Shown here in pieces: positions 4,079 to 20,410 of a stretch of DNA of 64,000 nt. The notes below the pieces were generated by a model that had not been told where the DNA came from, did not search any database, and was given only the letters and a program-made list of their open reading frames with translations. A program made the translations under genes and the position numbers. This stretch comes from Puniceicoccaceae bacterium K14. Lineage in GTDB: Bacteria; Verrucomicrobiota; Verrucomicrobiia; Opitutales; Opitutaceae. The stretch spans positions 1 to 64,000 of the forward strand of contig JAKYXN010000003.1 of the NCBI GenBank assembly GCA_022538095.1, in the 5' to 3' direction. How positions within the stretch are numbered: the stretch's first letter is position 1; each line of letters begins with the position of its first letter.

Positions 4079-7000
4079 TTACGAGCTTCGCTTGGAGGTA
4101 AGCGCTCCGTGAAAGTAACACTGATTCAACTCATCCGTTACAATCGCGGCAACATGTTCTGCATTTGCGCCTTCTAGGATGTCAGCGTGCGAGTAATCCA
4201 CGTCTATAATTTTAGAATTTGGAACGCTGTTTTTCCACGCAAGATCGGAGTGATTTGGGAATTCTTCTGAGTCGTAGCATTTTATTTGTACAACGCTCGA
4301 CGGATACGGATCAGTCGAGTATTTTCGAACAGCTTTTATGTAGCATTCATTGAGGCGCTTCTCTAGTATGTCGCGTTGAGATTTGGGGTCTCCAAACTTA
4401 TAGCGTAACTCGAGTTTTAGTTCTTTAAGGGTGCGATCAATTTTCGAAAGAACTCTCGAAATCAATTGGCCTTTTTTCAGTATTCGAATGAATCGATTCG
4501 ATGAGAGTTTAGATGTTGGGCTCGAAGGGTTTTGAACATTGAAAGTTCGTATCTGTGGCGCCGGGCCATCAAGAGATATCACTAACGGTACGTCGAAGTT
4601 TCGAGAAGCTAGTTGTTTTGCAATTTCGATAGCTATAAGGCCGCCAAAGCAGTGCCCCAGTATAAAGTAAGGCCCATTCGGATACTTTTTCTGTATTTCT
4701 TCGATATACCGGCTAGCTATGACTCGAATATCAGCGATAGGCTTTTCTTTGCCGTCAAGCCCAATGGGTTGAAGGCCATAAACGGGGAGTTCTGGATCTA
4801 GGGAGCTCGCGAAATCTCTATAGAATAATATTTCCAACCCTGCAGCGTGTATTAGAAATAGAGGGGGTCTTTCAGCTCCTTGGTTGATTTCTACAAGGTT
4901 TTGGAAGTTAGATTTTTGGTCGTCTGGGTTTTCTAAAAGAGGAGCAATTTCTCGAATCGATGGATGTTTGAATAAAGTCGATACTGGTAGTTTTGTATGA
5001 AACTTCTTCTCAATCGCGCTAAAGAAACGAACCGCTTGAAGGGATGTGCCCCCGATTTCGAAAAAATTATCGTCAACTTGGCAGTCTCTCGCTGGCAAAA
5101 TTTCGTTTAATAGTTCGATGAGAATTTGCTCTGTAGTGTCAGATGTATCACAAGGGGCGTTGGGCCTAGCTTTGAGATCGTTAACTTCTTTTCCCTGGAG
5201 CGCTTCGACTGGTTTTAGCGTAGATCTAGCGAGAAGATCATTTATTGGTATTTGCTTTTGCGAGCATATATTTTTGAGTGTTTTTTCAAAAAGAGAAAGC
5301 ACTGCATTCGCATAGGCTGGCGTAACCAGATGTGTGTCGAAATCGATAGAAATGCTCAGCGTACGTTCAATAATCAGAGATACGGAAAGAGCGTTGGTGG
5401 CAGTGCTATCTCCTTTGAAATTCCGAATTATTACCTTTTTATCTTCCGGATTCCATGGGAAATTTGCGATAGCAAGTGAGGTATCAAACGATAGCGGGGG
5501 CCTGCTCTTGTCTACCCAGTCGAGGATTTGAGCGCTGGAAGTGTATCCGTATTTTGAAACAAAATTTTGATTTAATGTAAGTGATTGTATCCAAGCGCTT
5601 AGGTTGGAGACCGGGAAACTTGTTTGGAAAGGAACAACATTGGCGAAGTTGCCAACCATTGTATCGAGATTGTCCACGGGGTGGTCCCTTCCGGATAGCG
5701 CTATTCCAAAAGTGACGGATGTTTGTTGCGTTATTTGTCCCAGGACCAACGCCCAACTTGCGATGGCTAGGCTGCTGGGTGTCGTCTGCAATCTCAATGC
5801 GGATGACTTTAACTCGATCAATACATCCTCTGGGAAATCAAACGATACCTTTTCTCTTTTCTTCGAGATGGCTCTGATATCTAGAGGAGTATTGTTAACA
5901 AGTGTGTTGCGAGCATCCTGCAAATATTCGATCCAGAATTTTGCTGCTTCCGTTGGTGACTTAGACTGAATCCAAGAGTCGTAACCACGCAGTGAATATT
6001 GGCGGTCCTCCCTTAGATTGTTCGAAGGGGTGTCGAGCTCTTCAAGCAAATCACGAATGACTATGGAGCTAGACCACCCATCTATGAAAATATGGTGACA
6101 CTTCCATGTCAAAAGGAAGGAGTCGCTATCGGTTTGAGCGATGGCTAGATTTGCTATCGATGGCTCATGTATTGATAGTGGAGCGTCTCGTTGGGTATCG
6201 ATAAACTCTTTGACTCGAGTTTCCTGTTCCTTTTTCCCCAGTTGGGAAAAATCAGAGTATACTATTTTTTGGTGCGGGGATTTGTGGACCTTTAGAACGG
6301 GGAAAGATTTTTCTAAATCTATACTAGAGCGTAATGCGGGGTGTCTATCGACGATCTTTTGCCATGCTTCCTGTATCTGGTTTATCGATATATTTCCTTC
6401 TATTTCTCCTGTTTGAAATATTTCGCCTTGGTCATTTTGGGGACTGCTTTGTTTATGAAGAAGCAGGCCCTGCTGAATGCTGGTTAGAGGATGAACAGAT
6501 TCAACGTTCTCTGGTGTGGCATGAGGAGACGCTGAGGTTGCAAACGATACGAGCTTTGTAGAAATCGTAGCTACTATTTTTTGAACAGTGCTCTTGTGGT
6601 GAAGTTGGTTGCTAAACCCGAAATCGAAGTGAAGTTGCTCATCGATAATAATTGCGTTTATCTCAAAGATTGCCGTTCGCTTGTTGCGTGGGTCTCTGTC
6701 ATTTCCGATTCGTTGACCAATTTGGGTTAAGGGTTTCTCGGCGTTGCTTCGCGCTACACGTCTACCCAAGTAATTGAGAGTGATTTCTGGTTGAGGTGCG
6801 TGAGAAAGAAGGGCGGGGTCCGAATACATTCCGTTTCGGATCAACCCATAGTCTATCCCATTGTTAGGGATTTTTGAAAACTGATATCGGATATCATTCA
6901 ATGCCTGTTGGTCAGTTTGGGAATAGCTCAAATCTGATACAAAAGGGTAGTAATCGGTCAGCCAACCTACGATAGTGTTTGCCTCAATATTTGGATCTAT

Positions 7001-8692
7001 TTCTTCGCGTCCATGGCTTTCGATTCCAATTAAGAACGTTGATGATCTTAGCCATTCTTTAAGACCGAGGTTCAGGGCAGTGAGAAGGTAACTTCGGATA
7101 GAGTTTTCTTTAGAAGTCGCTTTCTTCAGTAATGCTTGGGTATGCTCGATGCTTAACTCGAAACAAATGCTTTGAGCTGAGCTTTCCTGATTGTGGATTA
7201 AGCTACCTTTATCAAAGGGAATTTTGGAACAGTGGACGTAATCTTGATTCTTCCAAAACGCGTAGTCATTTTGCTTAGCCAGCTCAACTGCGCGCTGCTG
7301 CAGAGCGGAACCCCATTCCGTGTATTGGGAGCGAATTGCATTTGTGGCGAGCGGCCTCGCGCAAAGAAGAGCGTTTAACTCTTCACATAGAATATTAAGC
7401 GAAATGGCATCGACCGCGAGGTGGTGGGCTACGAGTAAGAGCCTGTTGCTTTTCCCAGATTCTCGCGCGAAGAACGTCGCTTTAAGGAGTCTGCCTTCAC
7501 GTATTCTTATCGTATGTTGTAGCGAGTTCGCGACCGTTTCAATGATTGTATCCAATCGAAAATCTTCTTCTTCTAGAATCGTTTGTTTCTGAATGGGTAA
7601 GAGTTTTCGCTCAAAGGAGTTGATTGATTGTATGTAGCGTGTTGGCGATTTTCTAAAACTGAGACGTAAGGAATCGTGTCTTTCGTAAATTGTTGAATAG
7701 GCTTCCTCAATTTGTTGATACGTTATCGATGGGTCAACTTCGAGTAATATAGATTGGTTCCAGTGATCTGGATTGATGAAATCGTTTTCGAAAAACCAGT
7801 TTTGAATTGGGGTGAAAGGAAGTTCCTTAGCCGGTTGGATTTTTGGGGAACGTGCGGATACTTTATCTTGAATTTTTTGTGTATCGCTTTCGATAGGCTT
7901 GGATAATCCTTCTGGGGTGGGATTTTTGAATAGTTGAGAAACCGATACATCAAACCCCTTCGATTTCATGCGAGAAATGAGGGTGATTGCTAGAATTGAA
8001 TCGCCACCGAGTTCAAAGAAATTGCTTTGGGGACTGATTTCTTCTTTCCCCAAGACATCGCTCCAAATGTGGCGTATTTCCTGTGTGGCCTGCTGCGGTA
8101 GGTTCGCTCCTTTAGGCTTCTCGACTTCGTTTGGCGATAGGAGTTCGCTTAGTTGGCCAATGGTCGGATGGTTGAATAAATCGGAAACTGTGATTGAAAA
8201 CCCAATTTTTCGAATTTCTGAAACAACTTGGATTGCCAAAATCGAATCACCCCCAAGCTCAAAGAAATTGTCTGAAGCGAGTACATTGGCGGCGCCTAGG
8301 ACATCCTTCCAAACCTGTATCAATAATTCTTGGGTTTTACTGGTTCCAGGCGTTTTGAATGTGGTCGAAGATGTTTTGGAATTTATTAGAGAGGATTTGA
8401 TGAGCGCTTCTTTATCAACCTTTCCGTTGGCTGTGGTCGGCAATTCCGAATGATACACGAAGCTTTTTGGAATCATGTAATTCGGAAGGCTCTTTTCTAA
8501 TTCTAGAGCTATTTGATCAGATGATTTTCCCGTTTCACCTGGGGCTAAAACGATATGGGCAGCTAGGTATTTATCTTGGCTGATATTATTCGCTACGCGG
8601 CCGGCAATTAAGGTCTCGCGCAGCTTTTCCTGTTTTTCTGGGGACAGTGACAGAGCCTTTTTTATCAATATGTCTTTCGCGTCTGGATTCAT
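4079..8692 (-). CDS. NRPS-3: A C-terminal subdomain-T-T-E-C-T-TE
   Basis: Terminal assembly-line protein, 1537 residues from the ATG at 8692, which overlaps the NRPS-2 stop as ATGA. Order: residues about 35-100 are only the C-terminal subdomain of an adenylation domain (A10 motif TTANGKVDKEAL, Lys91), completing the A domain of NRPS-2. Two carrier domains in tandem follow (LGGDSI, Ser150 and Ser232). Next is an epimerisation domain (about 290-720; HHLAVDA at 423-429; SHGREE and VGWLTDYYP motifs). Then come a condensation domain (about 733-1157; HHIFIDG at 866-872), a third carrier (IGGTSL, Ser1217) and a thioesterase (about 1267-1537). The thioesterase nucleophile motif is GHCFGG, so Cys1348 replaces the usual Ser; Asp1375 and His1502 are likely triad partners. 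A condensation domain after an epimerase is expected to be D-to-L selective. There is no A domain between the last C and T, so that carrier must be charged in trans or only receive the chain. The frame opens upstream to 8731, but the 13 extra residues look unlike any domain. Confidence 0.92.
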   Translation of the reverse strand: MNPDAKDILIKKALSLSPEKQEKLRETLIAGRVANNISQDKYLAAHIVLAPGETGKSSDQIALELEKSLPNYMIPKSFVYHSELPTTANGKVDKEALIKSSLINSKTSSTTFKTPGTSKTQELLIQVWKDVLGAANVLASDNFFELGGDSILAIQVVSEIRKIGFSITVSDLFNHPTIGQLSELLSPNEVEKPKGANLPQQATQEIRHIWSDVLGKEEISPQSNFFELGGDSILAITLISRMKSKGFDVSVSQLFKNPTPEGLSKPIESDTQKIQDKVSARSPKIQPAKELPFTPIQNWFFENDFINPDHWNQSILLEVDPSITYQQIEEAYSTIYERHDSLRLSFRKSPTRYIQSINSFERKLLPIQKQTILEEEDFRLDTIIETVANSLQHTIRIREGRLLKATFFARESGKSNRLLLVAHHLAVDAISLNILCEELNALLCARPLATNAIRSQYTEWGSALQQRAVELAKQNDYAFWKNQDYVHCSKIPFDKGSLIHNQESSAQSICFELSIEHTQALLKKATSKENSIRSYLLTALNLGLKEWLRSSTFLIGIESHGREEIDPNIEANTIVGWLTDYYPFVSDLSYSQTDQQALNDIRYQFSKIPNNGIDYGLIRNGMYSDPALLSHAPQPEITLNYLGRRVARSNAEKPLTQIGQRIGNDRDPRNKRTAIFEINAIIIDEQLHFDFGFSNQLHHKSTVQKIVATISTKLVSFATSASPHATPENVESVHPLTSIQQGLLLHKQSSPQNDQGEIFQTGEIEGNISINQIQEAWQKIVDRHPALRSSIDLEKSFPVLKVHKSPHQKIVYSDFSQLGKKEQETRVKEFIDTQRDAPLSIHEPSIANLAIAQTDSDSFLLTWKCHHIFIDGWSSSIVIRDLLEELDTPSNNLREDRQYSLRGYDSWIQSKSPTEAAKFWIEYLQDARNTLVNNTPLDIRAISKKREKVSFDFPEDVLIELKSSALRLQTTPSSLAIASWALVLGQITQQTSVTFGIALSGRDHPVDNLDTMVGNFANVVPFQTSFPVSNLSAWIQSLTLNQNFVSKYGYTSSAQILDWVDKSRPPLSFDTSLAIANFPWNPEDKKVIIRNFKGDSTATNALSVSLIIERTLSISIDFDTHLVTPAYANAVLSLFEKTLKNICSQKQIPINDLLARSTLKPVEALQGKEVNDLKARPNAPCDTSDTTEQILIELLNEILPARDCQVDDNFFEIGGTSLQAVRFFSAIEKKFHTKLPVSTLFKHPSIREIAPLLENPDDQKSNFQNLVEINQGAERPPLFLIHAAGLEILFYRDFASSLDPELPVYGLQPIGLDGKEKPIADIRVIASRYIEEIQKKYPNGPYFILGHCFGGLIAIEIAKQLASRNFDVPLVISLDGPAPQIRTFNVQNPSSPTSKLSSNRFIRILKKGQLISRVLSKIDRTLKELKLELRYKFGDPKSQRDILEKRLNECYIKAVRKYSTDPYPSSVVQIKCYDSEEFPNHSDLAWKNSVPNSKIIDVDYSHADILEGANAEHVAAIVTDELNQCYFHGALTSKRSS

Positions 8693-11600
8693 TTGATCGC
8701 CTTGATTGCTACCATAGAATTTGCCCACCAAGTATCGATGGTATCCTGAGGAACATTGATCGGTATTACTTTAAAGCTGACTTCTGAAAAATGCTTGAAA
8801 AGCGCCCGTTGGTGACGTCGGCTCAAAGAATCTATCTCAGTCGTTAAATAGGTGAACACGCCACCCGGCTTCAAATGATTCGCCATGTCTTCAAAGGCAT
8901 GTTCGGCAAACGTGATACTGTTGAGCACGTAATCCATGAATTCTTGTTCATTCATGGGGAATGCGTGAAAAAGGATTCCATCGAAATTTCCTAGTTTGGG
9001 CAGGGTATCCTGCCAACGCCCTTCAACCATTTCTATCTTTTTATCGGGTCTGTCCGCACGCCAGGGGATGAAATGATTCTCGATGCACGGACGGTTCATT
9101 TCAATGATCGTGTGCGATCGAACGATGGCGTCCTGTACAAAGCTTGCGGATACACCTCTTCCAAAGCCAATTTCCAGTACATCGCCGTGATTTTCGGTTA
9201 CATAGTTTGCCATGGCTTGCATGATAGGAGTCTGCCAATCCTCCATAATCTCGTCATGCTCGAGTTTTGTTTGCGTGATATCGATCAAGTCTGAATCTAT
9301 TTTATGATCTTTGCCTGGAACCATCGAGGGAGCGATTTCATGGAGCCTTTCAAGATCAGCCGCTAGTTCGTTGAGCGCTTGCCCGACCAACCAGTCTCTT
9401 TGAGCTTTTCGAGGTGGGTTGATGAAGTCCGCTGTTTTCGCTTGCAGTTCCAATTGGAAATCCGGGCGATTGATGATTCTCGATTTAAGTTCCGAAGTCG
9501 TTGTTAGCTCATTGAGAGCCTTCTCGATTGTTTCGGGCGGCAACGTGTCAATAAGCTCGCTCAAAGACATCTGAACTGCCTGAGGGGCGCCAACGACTAC
9601 GGCGTCCTCGACTTCTGGAATCGATTGGAGCGCTGATCTTATTTCGTCTGTTTCGATACGAAATCCGCGGATCTTGATTTGGTCGTCATTTCGTCCGTGG
9701 TAATGGAGTTTTCCGTTTTTGTCCCAACTCGCTAGATCTCCTGTAGCGTAGAACTTACCGTGGTCGCCTAAAGGAAAAAAGGATCTTTCGGTCAATTCAG
9801 GCTGGTTCAGGTATCCATCGGTTACTGTTGGACCTCCTATGTGCAGCTCGCCAATCTGACCAATCCCAATCCGATTTTTTTGGTTGTCCAGTATCCTGAC
9901 TTCTACGCCGGGTATAGGGGCTCCGATCGAAACGGTTTCGTCATGGCCTTTATGATTGTCTAAGTTTTCGACTGTTGCCCAGACTGTTGCTTCTGTGGGA
10001 CCGTATTCATTGAACAAAGTACAATCGGGCAGTTCTTTTTGGTGCTTGCGCAATAGAGCTTGTGTGCAGGCTTCACCGGCGACAATCGCTGTTCGCAAAC
10101 TAGCCATGCTAGCGGGGTCCCAGGAGAGAAGCTGTGTGTAAAGAGTGGGGACACAGAGGGTTGCCTGGACGTTATTTGCTCGCGCGAGTAGGCATAGTTT
10201 ATCTGGGTCTCGTATTTCTTCCGCAGTCGGAAAAACCAGAGTTCCCCCTGTCGAAAGCGTCCAGAACAGTCCCGCGACGGAACTATCGAACGAGAGGTTC
10301 GGTATCAATAAAAACGTTTGTGGAATTGAACCGTAAAAGTCTAGTCGCGCTTCAGTGGACGCCAGTAGATTCGCATGACTGACGGCTACTCCCTTTGGTT
10401 TTCCAGATGAACCAGAGGTGTAGATTAGGTAGGCGAGGCCATCGGATTCTGGCTTCGTGTCAATGGAAGCCGTGGATGCATTTAAGCAGTCTTTGACATT
10501 GAGGACGTTGCAGTTTTTGAGCGCAGAGCATTCGGACCGCTCTGGAGAAGCGATTACGAATTGAACCTTGGCGTCTTCTAAAATCGTTGAAACACGTTCG
10601 TCTGGATAGTCCGTTTCTAGAATCAAGTAGGGAGCGCCGGATTTCAGAATACCGATGATAGAAACAATCATATCGATAGATCTATCCTGGTACACGGCAA
10701 CCACTTGATTCTTTTTCGCTCCTGCTTGACTAAGAGAATTTGCTATGGAATTTGATTTGGCATCGAGTTCGGGGTAATCGAGTTGACCTGAACTTGTTAT
10801 AATGGCCTGGGTAGCGGATGTCGCGTTTTGATCGATACGTTCGAGTATCGAGGTTAATTGCGAGGAGCGAAGCGGTTTGCCTTTTTCAAACGAACGGATC
10901 TTTTTGGCCTCATCCGTGGGAAGGAGTTCTATTTCGCTAATCCTTTTATTCGGAGCCTGGACAACTTCCCATAGTACAGACGTGTAGAGCTCCAGTAGGC
11001 GGATAATCGTTTTTTCTTCAAAAAGATCGGTTCTGTATTCGACAATGGTTTCAAAGGTATCGTTCGACTCTGCAACGAAAAGGCTCAGTTCGAATTTCGA
11101 TGTTTTCGTCTCCACGAAAATCGGAGAAACGGATACGTCTTCCAATTCAAGTTTGGGAGTTCCTTCGTCTTCTCGTTGGAAGACAAACATTGTTTGGAAT
11201 AGTGGCTGCCTTCCAGGAAATCGCGGTGGTTTCACCGCTTTGGTTATGACGTCTGTTGGGAGGTCTTGGTGTTCGAGAGCTTCGAAAACAGAGTCTTTCG
11301 TGTCATTGAGAGCTTCGGCAATTGTTGTTTGGGAGTCGAATTTGGATCGAAGGACGAGCGTGTTCAGAAAAAAACCTATGAGATTTGCGGTTTCAGGCTT
11401 TCGACGGTTGGCTACTGGGCTAGAGACTAAAAGGTCGTCAATGTTTGCGAATTTACTGAGGAGTATATTGTATCCAAGAAGGAATGTTGTGAAAAGCGAG
11501 GCGTTGTTTTTCGCAGAGAAATCTCTCAGCGTTTCGGCAAGGTCCTGCGGAAGTTTTGCGCGAACGAGGTTACCTTGGTCGGGAATGACATCTGAATACG

Positions 11601-12363
11601 TTCCATCTACGGGCAGGGAAATAGGAGGCGGGGGGCTGGAGAGTTTCTTTTTCCAGTAGTTTGTTTGACGGGTTTGTTCCCCTGCTTTGAGCCAATCGCG
11701 TTGCCACTGAGAAAAATCGGAATAAGCGATTTCAAGCGTGGGGAATGTTGCCTGAATATTGCTGACGGATTGGCGATAAAATTGGCTGAACTCGGACCAG
11801 AATAGTTTGAGCGACCATTTGTCGAAAATGATATCGTGTATTGATAGGATAAGAACGTGGCTTGTTTGCGAGGAAGAGAATAGCCCTAGTCTGAGCAGTG
11901 GACCCTTGTTCAGATCAAAAGGAATTCTACCGAAGGCTTGGGCATCGTCGAACATCGCTTCAGTAGAAGCACAAGTTGCGTGTTCGAGGGTCAGTGTCAG
12001 CGTTGGTTTTGTGTGTTGGGTAATCTCTCCATCTTCGAGATCGTAGGTGCTTCGCAGGGGTTCATGACGGGCAACGACTTGATTCAGCGCGTAGGTGAGC
12101 GCGTCGCTATTCACCGAACTGTCGAGCTTAAAACTGCTGGTTATGTTGTTGCCGGGAGAATTTCCGCTCAGGTCATCTTGTACCCAAATCCGAGCTTGGC
12201 CGAGCGAGGCTAAGGCCGGCTGGTCTAACGGGCGCTTGGGAATTCCGTTAGGTTTGGATTTCGTCGACTTGGCGGTTCGGTTGAGGCGTTGTAGTAAAAG
12301 TCTCTTTTTGTCAGCAGATAGCTGAGACGCGGATTTGGCGTCGTTTGATGAATCGTCAGCCAT
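8689..12363 (-). CDS. NRPS-2: C-A core interrupted by methyltransferase
   Basis: NRPS protein of 1224 residues. A condensation domain spans about 45-480, but its HHxxxDG motif reads HDIIFDK at 176-182: the catalytic second His is Asp177 and the Gly is Lys182. The large A-domain subdomain spans about 500-905 (YTSGSSGKPKG at 648-658; NEYGPTE at 785-791; YATGD; motif A8 near 896-905). The specificity residues read D-S-A-L-I-A-E-V-W, which I cannot assign to an amino acid. After A8 the chain enters a SAM methyltransferase region (about 1035-1224) resembling guanidinoacetate methyltransferase: EDWQTPIM, LEIGFGRG (1063-1070), IIEMN, GRWQD and FDGILFHAFP. The protein ends there without A9/A10 or a carrier; these lie on NRPS-3, reached through a 4-base ATGA overlap. 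Its ATG overlaps the NRPS-1 stop by one base (TAATG), so translation is coupled throughout. Confidence 0.92.
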   Translation of the reverse strand: MADDSSNDAKSASQLSADKKRLLLQRLNRTAKSTKSKPNGIPKRPLDQPALASLGQARIWVQDDLSGNSPGNNITSSFKLDSSVNSDALTYALNQVVARHEPLRSTYDLEDGEITQHTKPTLTLTLEHATCASTEAMFDDAQAFGRIPFDLNKGPLLRLGLFSSSQTSHVLILSIHDIIFDKWSLKLFWSEFSQFYRQSVSNIQATFPTLEIAYSDFSQWQRDWLKAGEQTRQTNYWKKKLSSPPPPISLPVDGTYSDVIPDQGNLVRAKLPQDLAETLRDFSAKNNASLFTTFLLGYNILLSKFANIDDLLVSSPVANRRKPETANLIGFFLNTLVLRSKFDSQTTIAEALNDTKDSVFEALEHQDLPTDVITKAVKPPRFPGRQPLFQTMFVFQREDEGTPKLELEDVSVSPIFVETKTSKFELSLFVAESNDTFETIVEYRTDLFEEKTIIRLLELYTSVLWEVVQAPNKRISEIELLPTDEAKKIRSFEKGKPLRSSQLTSILERIDQNATSATQAIITSSGQLDYPELDAKSNSIANSLSQAGAKKNQVVAVYQDRSIDMIVSIIGILKSGAPYLILETDYPDERVSTILEDAKVQFVIASPERSECSALKNCNVLNVKDCLNASTASIDTKPESDGLAYLIYTSGSSGKPKGVAVSHANLLASTEARLDFYGSIPQTFLLIPNLSFDSSVAGLFWTLSTGGTLVFPTAEEIRDPDKLCLLARANNVQATLCVPTLYTQLLSWDPASMASLRTAIVAGEACTQALLRKHQKELPDCTLFNEYGPTEATVWATVENLDNHKGHDETVSIGAPIPGVEVRILDNQKNRIGIGQIGELHIGGPTVTDGYLNQPELTERSFFPLGDHGKFYATGDLASWDKNGKLHYHGRNDDQIKIRGFRIETDEIRSALQSIPEVEDAVVVGAPQAVQMSLSELIDTLPPETIEKALNELTTTSELKSRIINRPDFQLELQAKTADFINPPRKAQRDWLVGQALNELAADLERLHEIAPSMVPGKDHKIDSDLIDITQTKLEHDEIMEDWQTPIMQAMANYVTENHGDVLEIGFGRGVSASFVQDAIVRSHTIIEMNRPCIENHFIPWRADRPDKKIEMVEGRWQDTLPKLGNFDGILFHAFPMNEQEFMDYVLNSITFAEHAFEDMANHLKPGGVFTYLTTEIDSLSRRHQRALFKHFSEVSFKVIPINVPQDTIDTWWANSMVAIKAIK

Positions 12364-15300
12364 TATTCGTCGGGTGAGTCTGCAAGGAGGCTTCCCGCCT
12401 CCTCATCGCTGAGGCTTTCTATGTCTGCCAGAATCGCTTGTTCGATTGTAGCGCTTAATTCTGTAACAGTTGGCGTTTGGAAAATCGTCTGCAGAGGAAT
12501 ATCAATTTCGAAATCACGACAAAGTTGTAGCGTTATTTCCATTGCAGAAAGAGACGTTCCGCCTAGTTGAAAAAAGCTTGTTGTAACTGAGAAACTTGGG
12601 AGGCCGAGAGTCTTGGACCATAACTCATAGACTCTCTCTTCAACGGGTCCTTCGGGCGGAATGATGTTTTCCGAGTCCGGGGAGGGCGATTGTGTCGTCT
12701 GTGGCAGAGCTGTTGTATCAATTTTGCCGTTGATGGTGAGGGGCATTTTTTTGACCCAAATGAAATGCCTTGGCCGCATTGAACTTGGAAGTTCTGTGTT
12801 CAGACGATTTTGAAGTTCGCTTAGATCCAACTGTTTTTCCGCTTCGTAGTAGGCTACGAGCTCTTTTCGAGAAGAATCATTTGCTAATCGGTTTTCATCG
12901 TATCCAATTTCTGAAAGCATCTTTCTCACATCTTCCAACTCATAATTGTCATCGAGCTCTTCCAATGCTTCCTCTTTTTGTTTGTGACCAAGGCGAACGT
13001 CCCAACTGTAGGGAAGGGCATAACTGTGAAAACCGCGTTCCTTTTTATGGATGTATATGCCTACGTCGTTGACGAGGCAATTTGTCGAGCGGCCTGTATC
13101 CGATGGACGAATCCAAGGAAGACGATTTTCAAGATAGGTGTAGAGTTCTTCGAGGCTAGCGTCAATGTATCGATAAAAGTCCACAAATTGGATTTCATCA
13201 AAAATGGCATTGTTTTCGAAAACCGTGGTATCCAGGCAGCGAGTGGTTGCATCTTCAGTTTGGTGGTAGCGTTTGCGAGCTTCAAGTACCGCAACGTCAA
13301 CTTGATCTGCGTCAAATTTCCCGGTGGAAAAAAGATTTTCCGTGAGGCGAGTTTCGAAGAATTGTCCGCGGGAAAGGCCTGTTACGATGATAGGGATACC
13401 CAGCTCGTGGGCTCGATTCATGCCAAGGGTGTAAATCGTTTTGAAGCATCCGTTACATACGTTGCTGAAGCGGGTTAGCGAATCGCGAAAGATTTCATTC
13501 ATCGCTGGGGTTGTGGCAAATTCGTGATCAATCCCAAGCGTTTCGACGACGCGGCTAATGTTCGACATCGCTTGCTCTGAAAGGAATCCGTTGTCCAAAG
13601 TGAATGCGTAGACATTTAATCCCATGTCGACGAGTTTCGCCAAGGCATAGGAACTGTCTTTGCCACCGCTGTAGAAAACCATGCAGTCGTACTTGGGGTT
13701 CTTTTCTAGTCGTGATTTTTCGAAAAGATTACGCAGCTTTTCAGGCGTCCGAAAATAAGCGTTAGCCTCCTCTTGTATTGATTCGAAGGATTCGCAAACG
13801 CCACATACGCCTTGTTCGTTGAAAAGCACGTTGGGATAATTGGATGCGAGTCCGCAGCGTTTGCAGTGGGCGGTGTCGTTCGAATAACGCTCCACATTTT
13901 TCGGAGAGACAACATTCACATGGGCCGCTCGTACCGACGAGTGGGAAAGCAAGGCATTTTCGATTTCGCCGAGTTCTATTCGATGTCCAGAAATCTTTAC
14001 CTGGTTGTCGATACGTCCAAGAAATGCGAGACAGCCATTTTGGGAAAATCTGACGAGGTCTCCCGTTTTGTAGCTTTTAATGGATTCATTCGGCAAGGCG
14101 ATAAAGGAAGAATTCGTTTTTTCCGGGTCGCCTCGATAGCCGCGGGCGAGTCCATTACGAGTGATGTAGAGTTCGCCTGGAACCCCTTCGGGGACCGGTA
14201 TTTGTTTTTCGTTTAGCACTCGTAAACGGACGTGATCTGCCGGACGACCAATAGGTACACTGTTATTCTCTTCCGTCGAGTTATTTGGATCGAACGTGTG
14301 TATCATACAACCAACGACGGCTTCGGTTGGTCCGTATTCATTGTACAGTTCGACTGTTTGACTGAATTGAGAAATTATCGAACGTGCCAGCGACGCTTTA
14401 AGGTCTTCGCCTCCTAAAACGAAACGAGTGAGCCGAGAGTTCGAGAGATCGATTTGCTTTAGAAGTGAAAGGTGGGAAGGGGTTAGTTTTATGAAGTCGA
14501 CTTGATTGTCGTTGATAACGTCGATTACCGCTGAATCGACTTCAGAGTTTTCCTGCGGGTAAACGATCAACTCGCCTCCTGTGGTTAACGGAAGAAAGAG
14601 GCTCGTAACGGTTAGGTCGAAGGCGAGCGAGGTGAAGAGTGGGAAGCGTAGTGTGTCGCCTCGGACATAGGATCGTTCTGCCCAATCTATATAATCGATT
14701 AGCCCACGGTGTTCAATTTCCACTCCCTTAGGAATTCCAGTCGAGCCTGATGTATAAATGACGTAAGCGAGGTCGTCGCTCGCTGGTGATTGGAGAGTGG
14801 TACTTTGGGTCTTTTGCGTGAGAGAATCGAAGGAATAAAAAGGAGTACCTTTCGCTCGTTTCGAAAAAGATTGATGTCCGATTACGCTATGAGGCTGCGC
14901 GTTCGTAAGTATTTTATGAATTCGTTGCTCAGGCGAATTTAGATCGAGAGGAAGGTAAGCGGAGCCGGATCGAAGGACAGCGATGATTGCGACCACGGCT
15001 TCGATCGATCGAGGAAGCGCGACCGCTACAAGTGAATCTGAAGTGACTCCAGCTATTCGAAGGTTTTGGGAAATGACTTCGGATTGGTCCCAGAGTTCTC
15101 GATAGCTTAGCGTTTTCGAGCGTTCGCGAATCGCAATTTTGGTAGGCGTTTGAGTGACTTGCTTTGACAGTCTTTCAATGATGCTGTCATTCGGAATTGA
15201 GTTTTCCTCTGTCTGGTTGAAATCGATAAGGGTACGCTGTGTTTCTTCCTCAGTTAGAATCGAAATCTCCGATATATTTGTATCCAAATTATCAAGGAAT

Positions 15301-16577
15301 CCTCTGAGAATATTTCGAAAGTGTTGCGGAATGCGGTCTTGATCATAGGAATCGAACTGAGAGGTGCTCAGGTCGAATTGGAGTGTGAATTGTCCAGTAG
15401 CATTGTAGTCGTGGACTTGTAGCTTAAGGTCGTAAATGCTATCGATATGTCCAGATCCTAGCCAGTCAGCGTGAACGCCAAAGTTGGCGAACGTTCCAAA
15501 TGATTGCGGAAAGTAGTTGAGGACAATATTGCTTGTGTTTGTTGCGTTGGGCGAACTGGCGGCTGGAGCGACATTGGCCAAAAACTCTTTGAGTTCAGCC
15601 ATGCATTGTTCGCCCAAGCTGCGGAAGCTATCTTGGGGGGAGCACTCCACGTTGAAAGGAAACATCTCGATGAAACAGCCAAGCGACTGTTTTGATTGGG
15701 GGGTCGGTCTATTGCCAGCAGGGGAGTCAAACGTAGCCGTCGTTTGATCAGTTATCCGAGATACGAGGGCAGACAGGAGTGTTGAAAACACTGCAAAAAC
15801 TGAGACATCGGGGAAAAAACTAGCGAAGGCTTCCTCTTGAGCGATCGCTCGAATTCTTTCCGACTCTTCCCAAGTAAGCGTTTGTTCGATACGGGTGCTT
15901 TCTGTGTTGTCGGCCGATTTGGAGTTTCCATAGATCGGATTTGCTCGCGGGTGATTGGATTCCTTGGCTTTCCAATAGTCGATAGCTCTTTGTCGGTGCG
16001 ACTCCGTTTTTTGAAAAACGGATTTAGAGGTATCGTAATACGAACAAAGGGAATTAGATTCCGACGAGTCTTGTTTTTCCAGTTCAAGATATTTTTTGGA
16101 TACAGCTTGAAAGAGAAGAATGGTTGAGGAAGCGTCGGTGATTAAGTGATGTTGATTGAGATACCAACCAAATTTTTTCTCGTTGAGTTTAACCAGACAT
16201 GAATCGACGAGTTCTCCGTTTAAGGGAAGCGCAATAGAACAACGTTTCTTAGACCAAGATTCAAAATACTCTTCTGGGTTTTCTTCTGTAGAGAAATCGA
16301 TAATCTTGCATGCGCAGTTTCCTTTTGGATGGAGCTTGCGAAGGGGAGCGCTGTTTTCGGTATCGACGTATGTTCGGATAGCATCGCTTAAGTCTACCAC
16401 GTGCTGCCAAGCTTCTGCAAAACGTTCTCCATCGACTGGGCCATCAATGATGATAGAGAAAGCCATGTTGCAAAATGGGCTTTCGGGGTATACTTGTTGT
16501 CCAGTCCAAATCTGAACCTGACTGTGGGTCAGACCAGAATGAGAGAAAAAATCTGTAGAAGGAGTTGTATCCATCAT
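12363..16577 (-). CDS. NRPS-1: C-A(PP-loop amidotransferase insert)-T, Asn-like
   Basis: NRPS protein of 1404 residues. A condensation domain (about 15-445) has HHLITDA at 143-149, with Ala for the final Gly. The A domain begins near 470 (YTSGSTGIPKG 608-618, NEYGPTE 746-752, YKTGD 836-840, A8 near 862-871). It is interrupted at about 896-1235 and resumes with A9/A10 (LTINGKIDTTAL, Lys1285). A carrier follows (LGGTSL, Ser1342). Specificity residues read from Asp654, Leu655, Thr658, Lys697, Val720, Gly722, Glu747, Val755 and Gly756 spell DLTKVGEVG, one change from the textbook Asn code DLTKLGEVGK. The insert starts with a CxxC...CxxC zinc-ribbon-like part (Cys905, 908, 925, 928), then a PP-loop SGGKDS (970-975) and a further CNGC (1041-1044). 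This arrangement is typical of WbpG/WbuX-type N-acetyl sugar amidotransferases, which activate an amide carbonyl with ATP and exchange it for nitrogen. I infer that it modifies the Asn-derived residue. Its start overlaps the previous stop by four bases. Confidence 0.93.
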   Translation of the reverse strand: MMDTTPSTDFFSHSGLTHSQVQIWTGQQVYPESPFCNMAFSIIIDGPVDGERFAEAWQHVVDLSDAIRTYVDTENSAPLRKLHPKGNCACKIIDFSTEENPEEYFESWSKKRCSIALPLNGELVDSCLVKLNEKKFGWYLNQHHLITDASSTILLFQAVSKKYLELEKQDSSESNSLCSYYDTSKSVFQKTESHRQRAIDYWKAKESNHPRANPIYGNSKSADNTESTRIEQTLTWEESERIRAIAQEEAFASFFPDVSVFAVFSTLLSALVSRITDQTTATFDSPAGNRPTPQSKQSLGCFIEMFPFNVECSPQDSFRSLGEQCMAELKEFLANVAPAASSPNATNTSNIVLNYFPQSFGTFANFGVHADWLGSGHIDSIYDLKLQVHDYNATGQFTLQFDLSTSQFDSYDQDRIPQHFRNILRGFLDNLDTNISEISILTEEETQRTLIDFNQTEENSIPNDSIIERLSKQVTQTPTKIAIRERSKTLSYRELWDQSEVISQNLRIAGVTSDSLVAVALPRSIEAVVAIIAVLRSGSAYLPLDLNSPEQRIHKILTNAQPHSVIGHQSFSKRAKGTPFYSFDSLTQKTQSTTLQSPASDDLAYVIYTSGSTGIPKGVEIEHRGLIDYIDWAERSYVRGDTLRFPLFTSLAFDLTVTSLFLPLTTGGELIVYPQENSEVDSAVIDVINDNQVDFIKLTPSHLSLLKQIDLSNSRLTRFVLGGEDLKASLARSIISQFSQTVELYNEYGPTEAVVGCMIHTFDPNNSTEENNSVPIGRPADHVRLRVLNEKQIPVPEGVPGELYITRNGLARGYRGDPEKTNSSFIALPNESIKSYKTGDLVRFSQNGCLAFLGRIDNQVKISGHRIELGEIENALLSHSSVRAAHVNVVSPKNVERYSNDTAHCKRCGLASNYPNVLFNEQGVCGVCESFESIQEEANAYFRTPEKLRNLFEKSRLEKNPKYDCMVFYSGGKDSSYALAKLVDMGLNVYAFTLDNGFLSEQAMSNISRVVETLGIDHEFATTPAMNEIFRDSLTRFSNVCNGCFKTIYTLGMNRAHELGIPIIVTGLSRGQFFETRLTENLFSTGKFDADQVDVAVLEARKRYHQTEDATTRCLDTTVFENNAIFDEIQFVDFYRYIDASLEELYTYLENRLPWIRPSDTGRSTNCLVNDVGIYIHKKERGFHSYALPYSWDVRLGHKQKEEALEELDDNYELEDVRKMLSEIGYDENRLANDSSRKELVAYYEAEKQLDLSELQNRLNTELPSSMRPRHFIWVKKMPLTINGKIDTTALPQTTQSPSPDSENIIPPEGPVEERVYELWSKTLGLPSFSVTTSFFQLGGTSLSAMEITLQLCRDFEIDIPLQTIFQTPTVTELSATIEQAILADIESLSDEEAGSLLADSPDE

Positions 16578-18168: not shown

Positions 18169-19311
18169 TCAGAGTCCGGCAAGACGAGCGATTAGGTTTC
18201 GTTGAATATCGGATGTGCCAGCATATATGAGGCCACCGGTTGCGTCGCGGAGATCGCGTTCAATCTCAAACTCGCTTAAATAGCCGCGGGCTCCGTGGAT
18301 GCGAACAGCATCAAGGCTTGAGCTTACGAAGGCTTCGGAAATTGTTAGTTTTGTCATGGACGCCTCGAGAGCGGCCGTTTTTCCTTGGTCTTTGAGCCAG
18401 GCTGTTTTGTAGAGCAGTAGACGGCATGTTTCGAGCCGAGTCCGCATATCTGCGATGCGGTTTGAAATGCTTTGGTTGGCTCCTATGGCGCTGCCAAACT
18501 GTTTGCGGGACTTCGCGTAAGCGACGCATTGCTTTAGCTGCCGTGCCATGGTTCCTACCTGAGTGGCTAGAATAAAACTGCGTTCCCACTCCATGGATTC
18601 ATTGAACAGGCTCATTCCGACTCCTTCCTCGCCCAAGCGAGCGGACTCGGGGACGAGGCAATTATCGAATTTGATACTTCCCATCGGTAAGGTCCGGAGC
18701 CCCATTTTTTCGTTGTTATGGGAAAGGGTTATGCCGTCGATGTCGGTCTCTACCAAAAATGTGGATACACCCCATGCTCCCATGTTTGGATCTGTCTTGG
18801 CGAAAAGGATGACAAGGTCTGCAATTGGGGCGAAACCGATGTAGCTTTTTTTGCCATTTAATCGATAGCCGTCTTTGGTTAGGCTTGCGGATGCTTTCAT
18901 TGCGATTGCATCTGAGCCTGCGGATTCTTCCGTAATTCCATCTGCTGCGAAGAAGTCGCCTGCGAGGAGTTTTGGAATGTATTTGTTTTTTTGTTCGTCT
19001 GTTCCGACACTGAGAATCGGAGGAAATATGGTCCAGACTAGAGAACTGAGGGCGAGGCAAAGTCCATTGTCCGAACATCCTTCGCCGAAGGCTTCCAAGG
19101 CGGCAACGCGCGTGGTTGCGTCCCAGTCGAAGCCATCGAGATTTTTAGGGACGAATCCTTTGAGCAAACCATTCTTCGCGATTTCTTTCCAAGCGTCGCT
19201 GTCGAAGACGCTTTCCTTGTCGCGTTTTAAGAGGTCTTTGGAAAGTGACTTAGCGAATGCGTAGGTTTTCGATTTTAGCTCTTGTTGCTCTTTGCTGAGA
19301 TTAAAGTCCAT
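18169..19311 (-). CDS. Acyl-CoA dehydrogenase-like, prolyl-carrier oxidase candidate
   Basis: Flavoprotein of the acyl-CoA dehydrogenase superfamily, 380 residues, full length. Seen: TEESAGSDA near 127-135, the FAD-binding QFG at 271-273, and the C-terminal RDATGGLIYAGTSDIQRN. The Glu used as catalytic base by medium-chain enzymes in the YEGT position is Ala364 here. A Glu in SMEWER (241 or 243) lies where isovaleryl-CoA dehydrogenase and the PltE/RedW/CloN3 group carry their base. That pattern and the neighbouring prolyl ligase and free carrier point to four-electron oxidation of prolyl-S-carrier to pyrrole-2-carboxyl-S-carrier, not fatty acid oxidation. The start overlaps the cyclodeaminase end by 11 bases, indicating a polycistronic unit. 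Confidence 0.85.
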   Translation of the reverse strand: MDFNLSKEQQELKSKTYAFAKSLSKDLLKRDKESVFDSDAWKEIAKNGLLKGFVPKNLDGFDWDATTRVAALEAFGEGCSDNGLCLALSSLVWTIFPPILSVGTDEQKNKYIPKLLAGDFFAADGITEESAGSDAIAMKASASLTKDGYRLNGKKSYIGFAPIADLVILFAKTDPNMGAWGVSTFLVETDIDGITLSHNNEKMGLRTLPMGSIKFDNCLVPESARLGEEGVGMSLFNESMEWERSFILATQVGTMARQLKQCVAYAKSRKQFGSAIGANQSISNRIADMRTRLETCRLLLYKTAWLKDQGKTAALEASMTKLTISEAFVSSSLDAVRIHGARGYLSEFEIERDLRDATGGLIYAGTSDIQRNLIARLAGL

Positions 19312-20410
19312 TTTCGCGGGCGGATACTGGTAGAGGGGGTGAAAAATGGGTTTTGAAGTTTGAGGAACTGAGAAAGGAGTAAGGGTTTAGAGGGTCATCG
19401 GGAACGCTTTCAAGTTCGATTTGAGATCCTAGGCCGAGGTCTTCGGCGTACTGGAGAAAGAACTCCGTTGCGATAAAGTCGGCGTAGGCGTGTCCTGTGG
19501 AATCGAATACGGTTAATCCGTTTCTGAATTCTTCTTGTTGTTTCTTTGTCGCAGTCAGAAGAGCAGCGAGATCGAAAGAGACATCCGAACGTTTGAGTTG
19601 CTGGCATTCGCCTTCAATAAATGCTTGTTCGAGAAAGTCGGGACAAACAAAGGCGCGTTTTAGGAGAGCGTGAGGTAATTCGAATTTTTCCGGGAAATCG
19701 GAACCAACCGCGTTGATATGTAAGTCTGATTTGTTTAGGAAATCTTCGAAAAGGGCCCCAGTTCCTGGCACTTCGGAAGTGCAGGTGCAGAGTAGATCGA
19801 AGTCGGGCAGTTGCTCGATGAAGGCTTCTCGGCTTAGAACGTGAACGGGGATTTGTAGAAATTCGATGCGATTCTTCAGTGATTGGGCGGCGCCATCGAT
19901 TTTGTCGTGAACAAAGATTTTTTCAATGTTTAGGACACGGCTAAGGGCGTGAGCTTGAGTAACTGCTTGGGCTCCACCGCCGATAAATGCGAGGGAGAGC
20001 GGTCGATTGCTTGGAGTCAATATTGAGCTCGCCACTGCTGACATGGCTCCGGTTCTGAGCGCTGTGGGAAAGGTTCCGTCGAGGATGCCTCTCATGTGAC
20101 CGGTGTCGGTATCGAAAGCGCAAAGGGTCGAAAGAATAGTAGGGAGTTTGCGTTTGCCCGGGTTTGTTGGGTGATAGCCAACAATTTTAAGAGTCGCTTG
20201 ATTATCGGTCGCAGCTGGCATCCATTCGAGCAATCCAAGATCGGGCTCTGTGTAGTAGAGTCCTGATCGGGTTGGAATTTGGGCGTTGGCGAGTTCTTTA
20301 CTAGCGAATCCGGTTCGTAGCTTTTCGATCAAATTGTCCAACAAGTGATCTACACCAACATCAATTATGATGGTTTCAATATCTTTGGAACTGAGGAAGG
20401 TGGTTTTCAT
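19301..20410 (-). CDS. Ornithine cyclodeaminase/mu-crystallin family enzyme
   Basis: NAD(P)-binding protein of 369 residues. It shows the family phrase RTGAMSAVASSIL followed by the Rossmann glycine-rich turn AFIGGGAQA, and later CTSEVPGTGALF. Family members convert L-ornithine to L-proline with ammonia release, or act as lysine cyclodeaminases, imine reductases or alanine dehydrogenases; sequence reading alone cannot separate these. In this operon the simplest role is supply of L-proline for the prolyl ligase and carrier, linking primary metabolism to the pyrrole starter. A role in making a different non-protein amino acid for the modules of NRPS-2 or NRPS-3 remains possible. The start codon overlaps the carrier-protein stop (ATGA), and the end overlaps the dehydrogenase start. 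Confidence 0.85.
   Translation of the reverse strand: MKTTFLSSKDIETIIIDVGVDHLLDNLIEKLRTGFASKELANAQIPTRSGLYYTEPDLGLLEWMPAATDNQATLKIVGYHPTNPGKRKLPTILSTLCAFDTDTGHMRGILDGTFPTALRTGAMSAVASSILTPSNRPLSLAFIGGGAQAVTQAHALSRVLNIEKIFVHDKIDGAAQSLKNRIEFLQIPVHVLSREAFIEQLPDFDLLCTCTSEVPGTGALFEDFLNKSDLHINAVGSDFPEKFELPHALLKRAFVCPDFLEQAFIEGECQQLKRSDVSFDLAALLTATKKQQEEFRNGLTVFDSTGHAYADFIATEFFLQYAEDLGLGSQIELESVPDDPLNPYSFLSSSNFKTHFSPPLPVSARENGL

What the first reader, a model, noticed from the sequence alone, without database searches (positions are those of the whole stretch)
12560..13900. Adenylation domain interrupted by a zinc-ribbon/PP-loop amidotransferase-like domain
In NRPS-1, residues about 896-1235, between A8 and A9/A10, are replaced by a complete ATP pyrophosphatase-like enzyme: four Cys as two CxxC pairs (905, 908, 925, 928), SGGKDS at 970-975 and CNGC at 1041-1044, like WbpG/WbuX N-acetyl sugar amidotransferases. 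Known A-domain inserts at this site are mainly methyltransferases, with oxygenases or ketoreductases in others; I do not recall a described PP-loop insert. WbpG-type enzymes turn an acetamide into an acetamidine, QueC turns an amide into a nitrile, and related PP-loop enzymes insert sulfur. This one is therefore positioned to modify an amide on the tethered amino acid. No glutaminase partner (HisH-like) is in the window, so the nitrogen or sulfur source is open.
Basis: partly seen in the sequence, partly recalled or inferred. Interest (0 to 1): 0.95.

Follow-up and report, generated by a model that had tools for sequence, protein, structure and literature searches.

The report
Probable nitrile-making insert in peptide synthetase
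A bacterial peptide-assembly enzyme carries a second enzyme built into its asparagine-loading domain; it very probably belongs to an already described domain type that turns the asparagine side chain into a nitrile, here within a little-known gene cluster found in many bacterial groups.

Summary
NRPS-1 (12363-16577, minus strand) is C-A-PCP, and its A domain is interrupted between A8 and A9 by about 344 residues (893-1236; 12870-13901). The insert is a PP-loop enzyme with an N-terminal tetracysteine, SGGKDS, CNGC and a third invariant Cys1167. Its AF2 model best matches N-acetyl sugar amidotransferase 8WEX (Z 20.2 over 306 residues).

Gross et al. 2021 (PMC7966384) described a 38-kDa "AMDH" domain inserted in the Asn A domain of CysH (cystobactamid) and AlbIV (albicidin), with SGGKD and numerous homologues, all in Asn-specific A domains. 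It dehydrates carrier-bound Asn to beta-cyanoalanine, or isomerises it. I could not compare CysH or AlbIV by sequence; membership rests on these features. In the window and 80 related loci, 74 of 74 complete A-domain codes are Asn type.

Two additions. An invariant CxxC...C triad resembles the [4Fe-4S] sites of CtaC, LarE and TtuA, and could explain CysH's brown colour; but a subclade of amidotransferases, mostly beside HisH, has it too. And a widespread cluster family joins pyrrole-starter genes, this module and, often, a HupE/UreJ transporter.

The parts
12363..16577 (-). NRPS-1: C - A (interrupted) - PCP, 1404 aa
15234..16532 (-). condensation domain (residues 16-448)
   Evidence: Pfam PF00668
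13908..15167 (-). A domain part 1, A1-A8 (residues 471-890); nine code residues DLTKVGEVG, Asn type
12870..13901 (-). inserted PP-loop domain (residues 893-1236), AMDH-like; boundaries approximate
   Evidence: TIGR03573/QueC hits, AF2 pLDDT 90.2, Foldseek and VIA-align, homologues
13794..13865 (-). tetracysteine C905/C908/C925/C928, the NASAT-type zinc motif
   Evidence: 81 of 81 rows; zinc reported for 8WEX (PMC10607449)
13653..13670 (-). SGGKDS PP-loop, residues 970-975
   Evidence: 81 of 81 rows
13446..13457 (-). CNGC, residues 1041-1044 (first two Cys of the triad)
   Evidence: both Cys in 81 of 81 rows
13077..13088 (-). STNC, residues 1164-1167 (third Cys of the triad)
   Evidence: 81 of 81 rows
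12678..12863 (-). A domain part 2, A9/A10 with the catalytic Lys1285 (NGK)
   Evidence: that Lys invariant in 47 of 47 rows; AF2 strand resumes at residue 1239
12444..12638 (-). PCP of NRPS-1 (residues 1314-1378)
   Evidence: Pfam PF00550
16574..18166 (-). free-standing A ligase, predicted to load Pro on the free PCP
   Evidence: role inferred from its neighbours
18169..19311 (-). prolyl-PCP dehydrogenase-like, PigA/RedW type (pyrrole starter)
   Evidence: NF053553 399 bits (cut-off 500) and NF045652 337 bits (cut-off 650): best families, but below both cut-offs
19301..20410 (-). ornithine cyclodeaminase family
   Evidence: PF02423
20407..20670 (-). free-standing carrier protein, 87 aa
20699..21934 (-). 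HupE/UreJ_2 membrane protein; the only match found in this genome
   Evidence: PF13795
21921..22652 (-). phosphopantetheinyl transferase
   Evidence: PF01648
8689..12363 (-). NRPS-2: C - A(1-8) - methyltransferase-like domain
4079..8692 (-). NRPS-3 from ATG 8692: A9/A10 - PCP - PCP - E - C - PCP - TE

Best explanation
The insert is an AMDH-type domain (amide dehydratase/aminomutase, as named for CysH) in an asparagine-loading module. The A domain adenylates L-Asn and loads it on the PCP. The PP-loop domain, built into the C-terminal sub-domain of the same A domain, then binds a second ATP, activates the side-chain carboxamide oxygen (most likely as the O-adenylyl imidate, releasing pyrophosphate) and eliminates AMP, leaving beta-cyanoalanyl-S-PCP. 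The C domain joins this to a pyrrole-2-carbonyl starter made from Pro by the free A ligase, PCP and dehydrogenase. Shown here: architecture, fold class, invariant motif residues, Asn code, gene context. Inferred from the literature on CysH: dehydration. Inferred only: adenylation rather than phosphorylation, order relative to condensation, the pyrrole starter, and a role for the Cys triad (candidate [4Fe-4S] site).
For: Asn-type code in 74 of 74 complete codes; 79 of the 81 rows were aligned and 5 of those were incomplete. In the same loci, of the A domains that a motif anchor caught, 68 of 68 with the insert but 1 of 53 without it have the Asn pattern. Insert between A core and A9/A10 in 77 of 80 loci; two of the other three (L045, L055) are cut by contig ends, and L119 is cut upstream but also lacks the A9/A10 hit downstream. 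SGGKDS in 81 of 81 rows. A10 Lys invariant in 47 of 47 aligned modules, so the A domain should be active. AF2 of A + insert, pLDDT 87.8, puts the insert between two strands of the A sub-domain; the interrupted A domain 5WMM is the third-best Foldseek hit. Precedent: CysH (38-kDa insert, SGGKD) dehydrates bound Asn (+96 instead of +114), CysH without AMDH does not, and its BLAST homologues were all in Asn A domains (PMC7966384, section 7 read in full). AlbIV: 342-residue AANH insert, Asn to beta-cyanoalanine suggested, DLTKIGEVGK stated to be compatible with that residue (PMC12283262 passages). ATP-dependent amide-to-nitrile dehydration has precedent in ArtA/NitB (PMC13060819 passages); ArtA is among the structural matches, Z 13.0, tied with other PP-loop enzymes.
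Against: No CysH or AlbIV sequence was compared. By HMM the insert is nearest to amidotransferase WbuX (129 bits), not to QueC. The Cys triad is also that of sulfur-inserting CtaC/LarE/TtuA. The CysH domain can also isomerise Asn. A relative, L178, lies beside an uninterrupted A-PCP whose core does not show the Asn pattern (FDAV, LYGPSE), so the wider clade is not tied to Asn A domains. The metabolite of this cluster is unknown.
Confidence: 0.65

Rival explanations
1. AMDH-type domain whose main output here is aminomutation (L-isoasparagine), not the nitrile.
For: CysH AMDH does both; isomerisation dominates after beta-hydroxylation by CysJ (PMC7966384).
Against: No 2-oxoglutarate hydroxylase among the annotated genes of the window cluster; a TauD-like motif scan of 81 loci found none, but that scan had no positive control.
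Confidence: 0.12
2. CtaC-like thioamide synthetase: a [4Fe-4S] cluster on C1041/C1044/C1167 delivers sulfide to the ATP-activated Asn amide, giving thioasparagine.
For: CtaC acts on carrier-bound substrates, has a three-Cys Fe-S motif (C154, C157, C284; C157 to C284 = 127 residues) and no sulfur-mobilising gene in its cluster; the insert has C1044 to C1167 = 123. Cys triad in 81 of 81 rows. No HisH motif in 81 sources.
Against: Published chemistry of the described homologue is dehydration. The triad also occurs in 6 of 66 free-standing relatives, 4 of which lie beside HisH, which points to amidotransfer; two others and a seventh, L198, showed no HisH motif.
Confidence: 0.1
3. True amidotransferase: Asn amide to amidine with ammonia.
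For: Best HMM is WbuX; best fold is NASAT 8WEX over nearly the whole domain.
Against: Below the WbuX cut-off (129 against 203 bits). No HisH motif in 81 sources, whereas the same pattern found HisH within 1.5 kb of 20 of 66 free-standing relatives (it misses some, e.g. the NY variant in L139). The 18 inserts put in the tree group with carrier-associated relatives and apart from NASATs.
Confidence: 0.08
4. A degenerate or purely structural insert.
For: None found.
Against: SGGKDS and seven Cys invariant in 81 of 81 rows over 13 labelled phyla.
Confidence: 0.02

Closest known systems
AMDH domain of CysH (cystobactamid; Cystobacter velatus) and its homologue in AlbIV (albicidin), PMC7966384
   Same: Insert of about 340 aa in an Asn-specific A domain, SGGKD motif, in cis with a carrier; homologues reported only in Asn A domains.
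   Different: CysH and AlbIV are stand-alone modules feeding pABA-based antibiotics; here the module is C-A-PCP after a probable pyrrole starter, with HupE and, in some relatives, a TonB receptor. Sequence identity not measured.
N-acetyl sugar amidotransferase (NASAT; WbuX/WbpG/LpNASAT 8WEX)
   Same: Tetracysteine + PP-loop fold over nearly the whole domain (Z 20.2, 306 residues).
   Different: Free-standing, often beside HisH; 60 of 66 free-standing relatives aligned here lack the full CxxC...C triad; the insert scores below the family cut-off.
CtaC, closthioamide thioamide synthetase (PMC6772006)
   Same: PP-loop enzyme acting on carrier-bound substrate; three-Cys motif with similar spacing.
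   Different: Free-standing; inserts sulfur into backbone amides; no Asn A domain involved.
ArtA/NitB and QueC nitrile synthetases
   Same: PP-loop ATPases that make a nitrile; ArtA/NitB from an amide.
   Different: Free-standing; weak or no sequence similarity; other substrates.
Interrupted A domains with methyltransferase inserts (TioS 5WMM, KtzH)
   Same: Same A8/A9 insertion site; A domain stays intact.
   Different: The inserted enzyme is a SAM methyltransferase.

Membership tests
AMDH domain (CysH/AlbIV) | inserted within an A domain | tested here: met
   77 of 80 loci flanked by A core and A9/A10; model
AMDH domain (CysH/AlbIV) | host A domain specific for L-Asn | tested here: met
   DLTKVGEVG in the window; 74 of 74 complete codes Asn type. 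That DLTK[VI]GEVGK means Asn is recalled from the Stachelhaus code; PMC12283262 treats DLTKIGEVGK in its Asp/Asn section. Prediction, not assay
AMDH domain (CysH/AlbIV) | size about 38 kDa / 342 residues | tested here: met
   about 344 residues, 39.6 kDa, 893-1236
AMDH domain (CysH/AlbIV) | ATP-binding motif SGGKD | tested here: met
   81 of 81 rows
AMDH domain (CysH/AlbIV) | sequence homology to CysH/AlbIV; the seven published core motifs | not tested
   CysH (KP836244.2) was not found in the collections reached; AlbIV deliberately not fetched; supplement not readable
AMDH domain (CysH/AlbIV) | dehydrates or isomerises carrier-bound Asn | not testable with these tools
   needs protein mass spectrometry
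NASAT / WbuX (TIGR03573) | curated HMM cut-off 203.2 bits | tested here: not met
   129.3 bits
NASAT / WbuX (TIGR03573) | tetracysteine CXXCXn[GN]XCXXC and SGGXDS | tested here: met
   C905/C908...GVC925GVC928, SGGKDS; motif definition PMC10607449
NASAT / WbuX (TIGR03573) | glutaminase partner HisH nearby | tested here: not met
   no HisH motif in the window and 80 loci; motif scan only, which misses some variants
Fe-S PP-loop sulfur transferases (CtaC/TtuA/LarETm) | CxxC...C triad | tested here: met
   C1041, C1044, C1167 in 81 of 81 rows
Fe-S PP-loop sulfur transferases (CtaC/TtuA/LarETm) | bound [4Fe-4S] cluster and sulfur transfer | not testable with these tools
   no spectroscopy; coordinates of the model were not among the files, so Cys-Cys distances were not measured
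QueC | TIGR00364 curated cut-off 150.3 bits | tested here: not met
   26.7 bits; Pfam QueC 24.3 against 22, partial

The most novel reading that the evidence does not exclude
The AMDH-type insert is a [4Fe-4S] PP-loop enzyme: the invariant CxxC...C triad holds a cluster that acts on the ATP-activated Asn amide, which would explain why CysH is brown and how one domain can do two reactions. In this cluster family it builds a pyrrolyl-(modified Asn) metal chelator that is taken up with a HupE/UreJ permease and, mostly in Bacteroidota, a TonB receptor.
Probability: 0.25. Interest if true: 0.72.

Novelty: new member of a known kind. Interest (0 to 1): 0.42.

Why it matters
AMDH chemistry was reported in 2021 as mechanistically unknown and without a structural template (PMC7966384, section 7). 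Placing such an insert in the NASAT PP-loop fold, with an invariant Cys triad like that of Fe-S sulfur transferases, gives concrete residues to mutate. The loci also show a recurrent, to my knowledge uncharacterised gene cluster (pyrrole-starter genes + Asn-modifying module, often with HupE/UreJ) in 13 labelled phyla, a lead to unknown nitrile- or isoasparagine-bearing metabolites and possibly a metallophore class.

Tried and rejected
One search read A-domain codes by regular expression and gave several odd codes (DRRK..., DAPA..., DQRK..., DAAK..., DARK..., DLTDQ..., and unread positions); alignment to the window protein resolved these to the Asn type, five rows (L051, L064, L072, L080, L104) stay incomplete, and two loci (L055, L119) had too little upstream sequence and were dropped. 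Regular expressions for A8/A10 were too strict (A8 in 50 of 80, A10 in 42 of 80); I rely instead on tblastn and the alignment.

I first leaned to thioamide formation because of the Cys triad. A control weakened it: 6 of 66 free-standing relatives have all three Cys (L034, L035, L037, L039, L156, L157) and 4 of the 6 lie beside HisH; L035 lies on a short contig, and L157 and a seventh, L198, show no HisH motif in the stretches held. In the tree (18 of the 81 inserts used) these sit away from the inserts, but the deep split is weakly supported (93/73), the root is arbitrary, and L179 is a long branch.

Amidine formation was rejected as the first choice for lack of HisH and because the described homologue dehydrates. 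The motif scan also gave two GATase-like and two rhodanese-like short matches, taken as chance; its cysteine-desulfurase pattern had no positive control. A search of viral contigs found no relative. PMC13107220 and PMC13185837 were read in passages and are not relevant. Absence of a 2-oxoglutarate hydroxylase outside the window rests on an uncontrolled motif scan.

Full report
WHAT IS THERE. The ORF at 12363-16577 on the minus strand encodes 1404 residues: condensation domain 16-448, AMP-binding 471-814, A9/A10 1240-1285, PCP 1314-1378. Between A8 and A9 lie about 344 residues (893-1236, window 12870-13901; 39.6 kDa) matching TIGR03573/WbuX over 904-1222 with 125 bits, below its cut-off of 203.2, and Pfam QueC over 965-1038 with 24.3 bits, cut-off 22. 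The stated interval 12560-13900 also takes in A9/A10 and part of the PCP.

FOLD. AF2 of the insert with 66 aligned rows (A3) gave pLDDT 90.2. VIA-align against PDB chains: NASAT 8WEX Z 20.2, rmsd 4.7, 306 residues; then LarE, NadE, NcsA and nitrile synthetase ArtA at Z about 13, tied (Foldseek). A second model of A core + insert + A9/A10 (840 residues, 47 rows) had pLDDT 87.8; the insert interrupts between the strand ending at model residue 428 (protein 890) and the strand starting at 777 (protein 1239). Of the 50 Foldseek rows shown for it, the top ones are A domains and A-domain-bearing synthetases, with the methylation-interrupted 5WMM third.

RELATIVES. A scan of genome contigs with an alignment of three inserts found 99 relatives; the best 80 were kept as L043-L122, 79 of them labelled with 13 phyla: Pseudomonadota 19, Actinomycetota 17, Acidobacteriota 13, Bacteroidota 13, Chloroflexota 4, Verrucomicrobiota 3, Rhodothermota 3, Nitrospirota 2, and one each of Myxococcota, Planctomycetota, Calditrichota, Hydrogenedentota and Gemmatimonadota (many are MAGs). 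The closest is Verrucomicrobiae bacterium DG1235, 73% identity. L045 appears to be the contig of G147 (same length), a genome in the window's order whose record is titled Opitutales, and L107 that of G380. In 77 of 80 loci the insert is preceded by an A core and followed by A9/A10; L045 and L055 are cut by contig ends, and L119 is cut upstream but also lacks the A9/A10 hit downstream. The feature is rare within groups: 2 of 273 genomes of the own order, 2 of 387 of the phylum, 2 of 247, 3 of 396 and 4 of 297 in three further phylum samples, each count including the centre genome.

CONSERVATION AND SPECIFICITY. Over 81 rows (window + 80 loci), C905, C908, C925, C928, SGGKDS, C1041, C1044, C1167 and others are identical in all 81; residue 1042 of CNGC is Asn in 65 of 81. 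The A-domain codes are D[LM]TK[IV]GE[VI][GA] in 74 of 74 complete codes; 79 of 81 rows were aligned and 5 of these were incomplete. The A10 Lys is invariant in 47 of 47 rows. As a control, in the same loci, among the A domains caught by a motif anchor, 68 of 68 with the insert but 1 of 53 without it have the Asn pattern. That this code means Asn is recalled from the Stachelhaus code; PMC12283262 discusses DLTKIGEVGK in its Asp/Asn section and says that it also fits beta-cyanoalanine (passages and outline read).

WHAT IS KNOWN. PMC7966384 (abstract, passages and the whole of section 7 read) names a 38-kDa AMDH domain inserted in CysH, 69% identical to the unknown domain of AlbIV. CysH converts bound Asn (+114) to beta-cyanoalanine (+96); CysH lacking the domain does not; deletion in vivo abolishes isoasparagine and cyanoalanine linkers. 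BLAST homologues were numerous, all in Asn A domains, with SGGKD in core region 1 of the 25 closest; CysH is dark brown; no structural template was available; the mechanism was called unknown. PMC12283262 notes AlbIV's insertion of 342 residues, probably of the AANH superfamily. The original albicidin paper (10.1038/nchembio.1734) is not held. The review PMC11355689 (passages) names methylation, Ox and KR inserts in A domains, typically at a8/a9. The window's insert fits the AMDH description in site, size, motif and host specificity. I could not compare sequences, so membership is inferred, strongly.

HOW IT PROBABLY WORKS. AANH/PP-loop enzymes adenylate their substrate with ATP; a nucleophile then attacks and AMP leaves (PMC6772006, parts 1 and 2 of 3 read). 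Applied to Asn-S-PCP, adenylation of the amide oxygen followed by loss of AMP without an outside nucleophile gives the nitrile. ArtA/NitB do amide-to-nitrile dehydration with ATP (PMC13060819 passages). The older albicidin proposal was phosphorylation, as reported in PMC7966384. The insert is in cis with the PCP; for methyltransferase inserts the review states that modification follows loading.

THE CYS TRIAD. C1041-x2-C1044 and C1167 correspond in kind to the three-Cys [4Fe-4S] motifs of CtaC (C154, C157, C284) and LarETm (passages of PMC9283937). Spacing from second to third Cys is 123 here and 127 in CtaC. The tetracysteine matches the zinc motif of NASAT (PMC10607449, abstract and passages). 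Of 66 free-standing relatives, 60 lack the full triad; 6 have it, 4 of these beside HisH, so the triad alone does not prove sulfur chemistry. In a tree of 85 rows, 18 of the 81 inserts group with three carrier-associated relatives (L178, L179, L197) at 100/94, apart from the other three-Cys group, which is partly HisH-linked. L178 (Streptomyces plasmid) is a PP-loop protein fused to a condensation-like part beside an A-PCP gene and asnB; that A domain is uninterrupted and does not show the Asn pattern. L179 lies beside an acyl carrier and a ketosynthase; L197 is followed by a small carrier-like gene, recognised by eye.

CLUSTER. Upstream lie PPTase, HupE/UreJ_2, PCP, ornithine cyclodeaminase family, a PigA/RedW-like dehydrogenase and an A ligase, the set expected for pyrrole-2-carbonyl-PCP; the dehydrogenase is below both curated cut-offs, so the pyrrole is a prediction. 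Downstream, NRPS-2 and NRPS-3 add a second module with an MT-like insert, E, C, PCP and TE. By tblastn hits in the 43 of 80 loci with at least 7 kb on both sides: A ligase 37, dehydrogenase 38, small PCP 32, HupE 33, cyclodeaminase 18, PPTase 16, MT 10, TonB receptor 9; paralogues could inflate the first three. HupE/UreJ_2 occurs once in the window's genome, here, and in 0 of 14 control genomes. HupE plus TonB suggests a metal-related product; this is an inference only. No HisH or cysteine desulfurase motif was found in the window and 80 loci, 1.39 Mb.

VERDICT. Real and well conserved, but the domain type was described in 2021. New here, as far as these calls go: the fold assignment, the Cys triad, the carrier-associated clade and the breadth of the pyrrole-Asn cluster family.

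Noticed in passing
8692-9558 (-), with 8689-8692: The module-2 A domain is also interrupted at A8/A9, by a methyltransferase-like domain without a Pfam hit; the gene then stops and NRPS-3 starts by ATGA overlap with A9/A10, so one A domain is split over two genes. In 10 of 80 other loci the MT is a free gene of about 262 aa.
   Followed up: partly
20699-21934 (-): HupE/UreJ_2 membrane protein, the only match in the genome, present near this NRPS in 33 of 43 well-covered loci.
   Followed up: partly
L081:11491-13707, L043, L070 and others: TonB-dependent receptor gene in 11 of 80 loci, 10 of them Bacteroidota and one Verrucomicrobiae DG1235.
   Followed up: partly
L197:2280-3608, L209:6154-9617, L179:8752-10440: Free-standing STNC-type PP-loop proteins next to a small carrier protein, in L209 with an asnB-like gene (by eye) and in L197 with a further PP-loop (SGGIDS) ORF: possibly a separate carrier-based amide-modifying operon.
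   Followed up: partly
L034, L037, L039, L156: A NASAT subclade with a CxxC...KIEC triad beside HisH: a candidate Fe-S amidotransferase.
   Followed up: partly
4079-8692 (-): NRPS-3 has tandem PCPs, an E-type domain and a final C-PCP-TE module without its own A domain.
   Followed up: no
45523-51294 (+): 1923-aa protein with thrombospondin-3, hexapeptide and autotransporter-type repeat matches.
   Followed up: no
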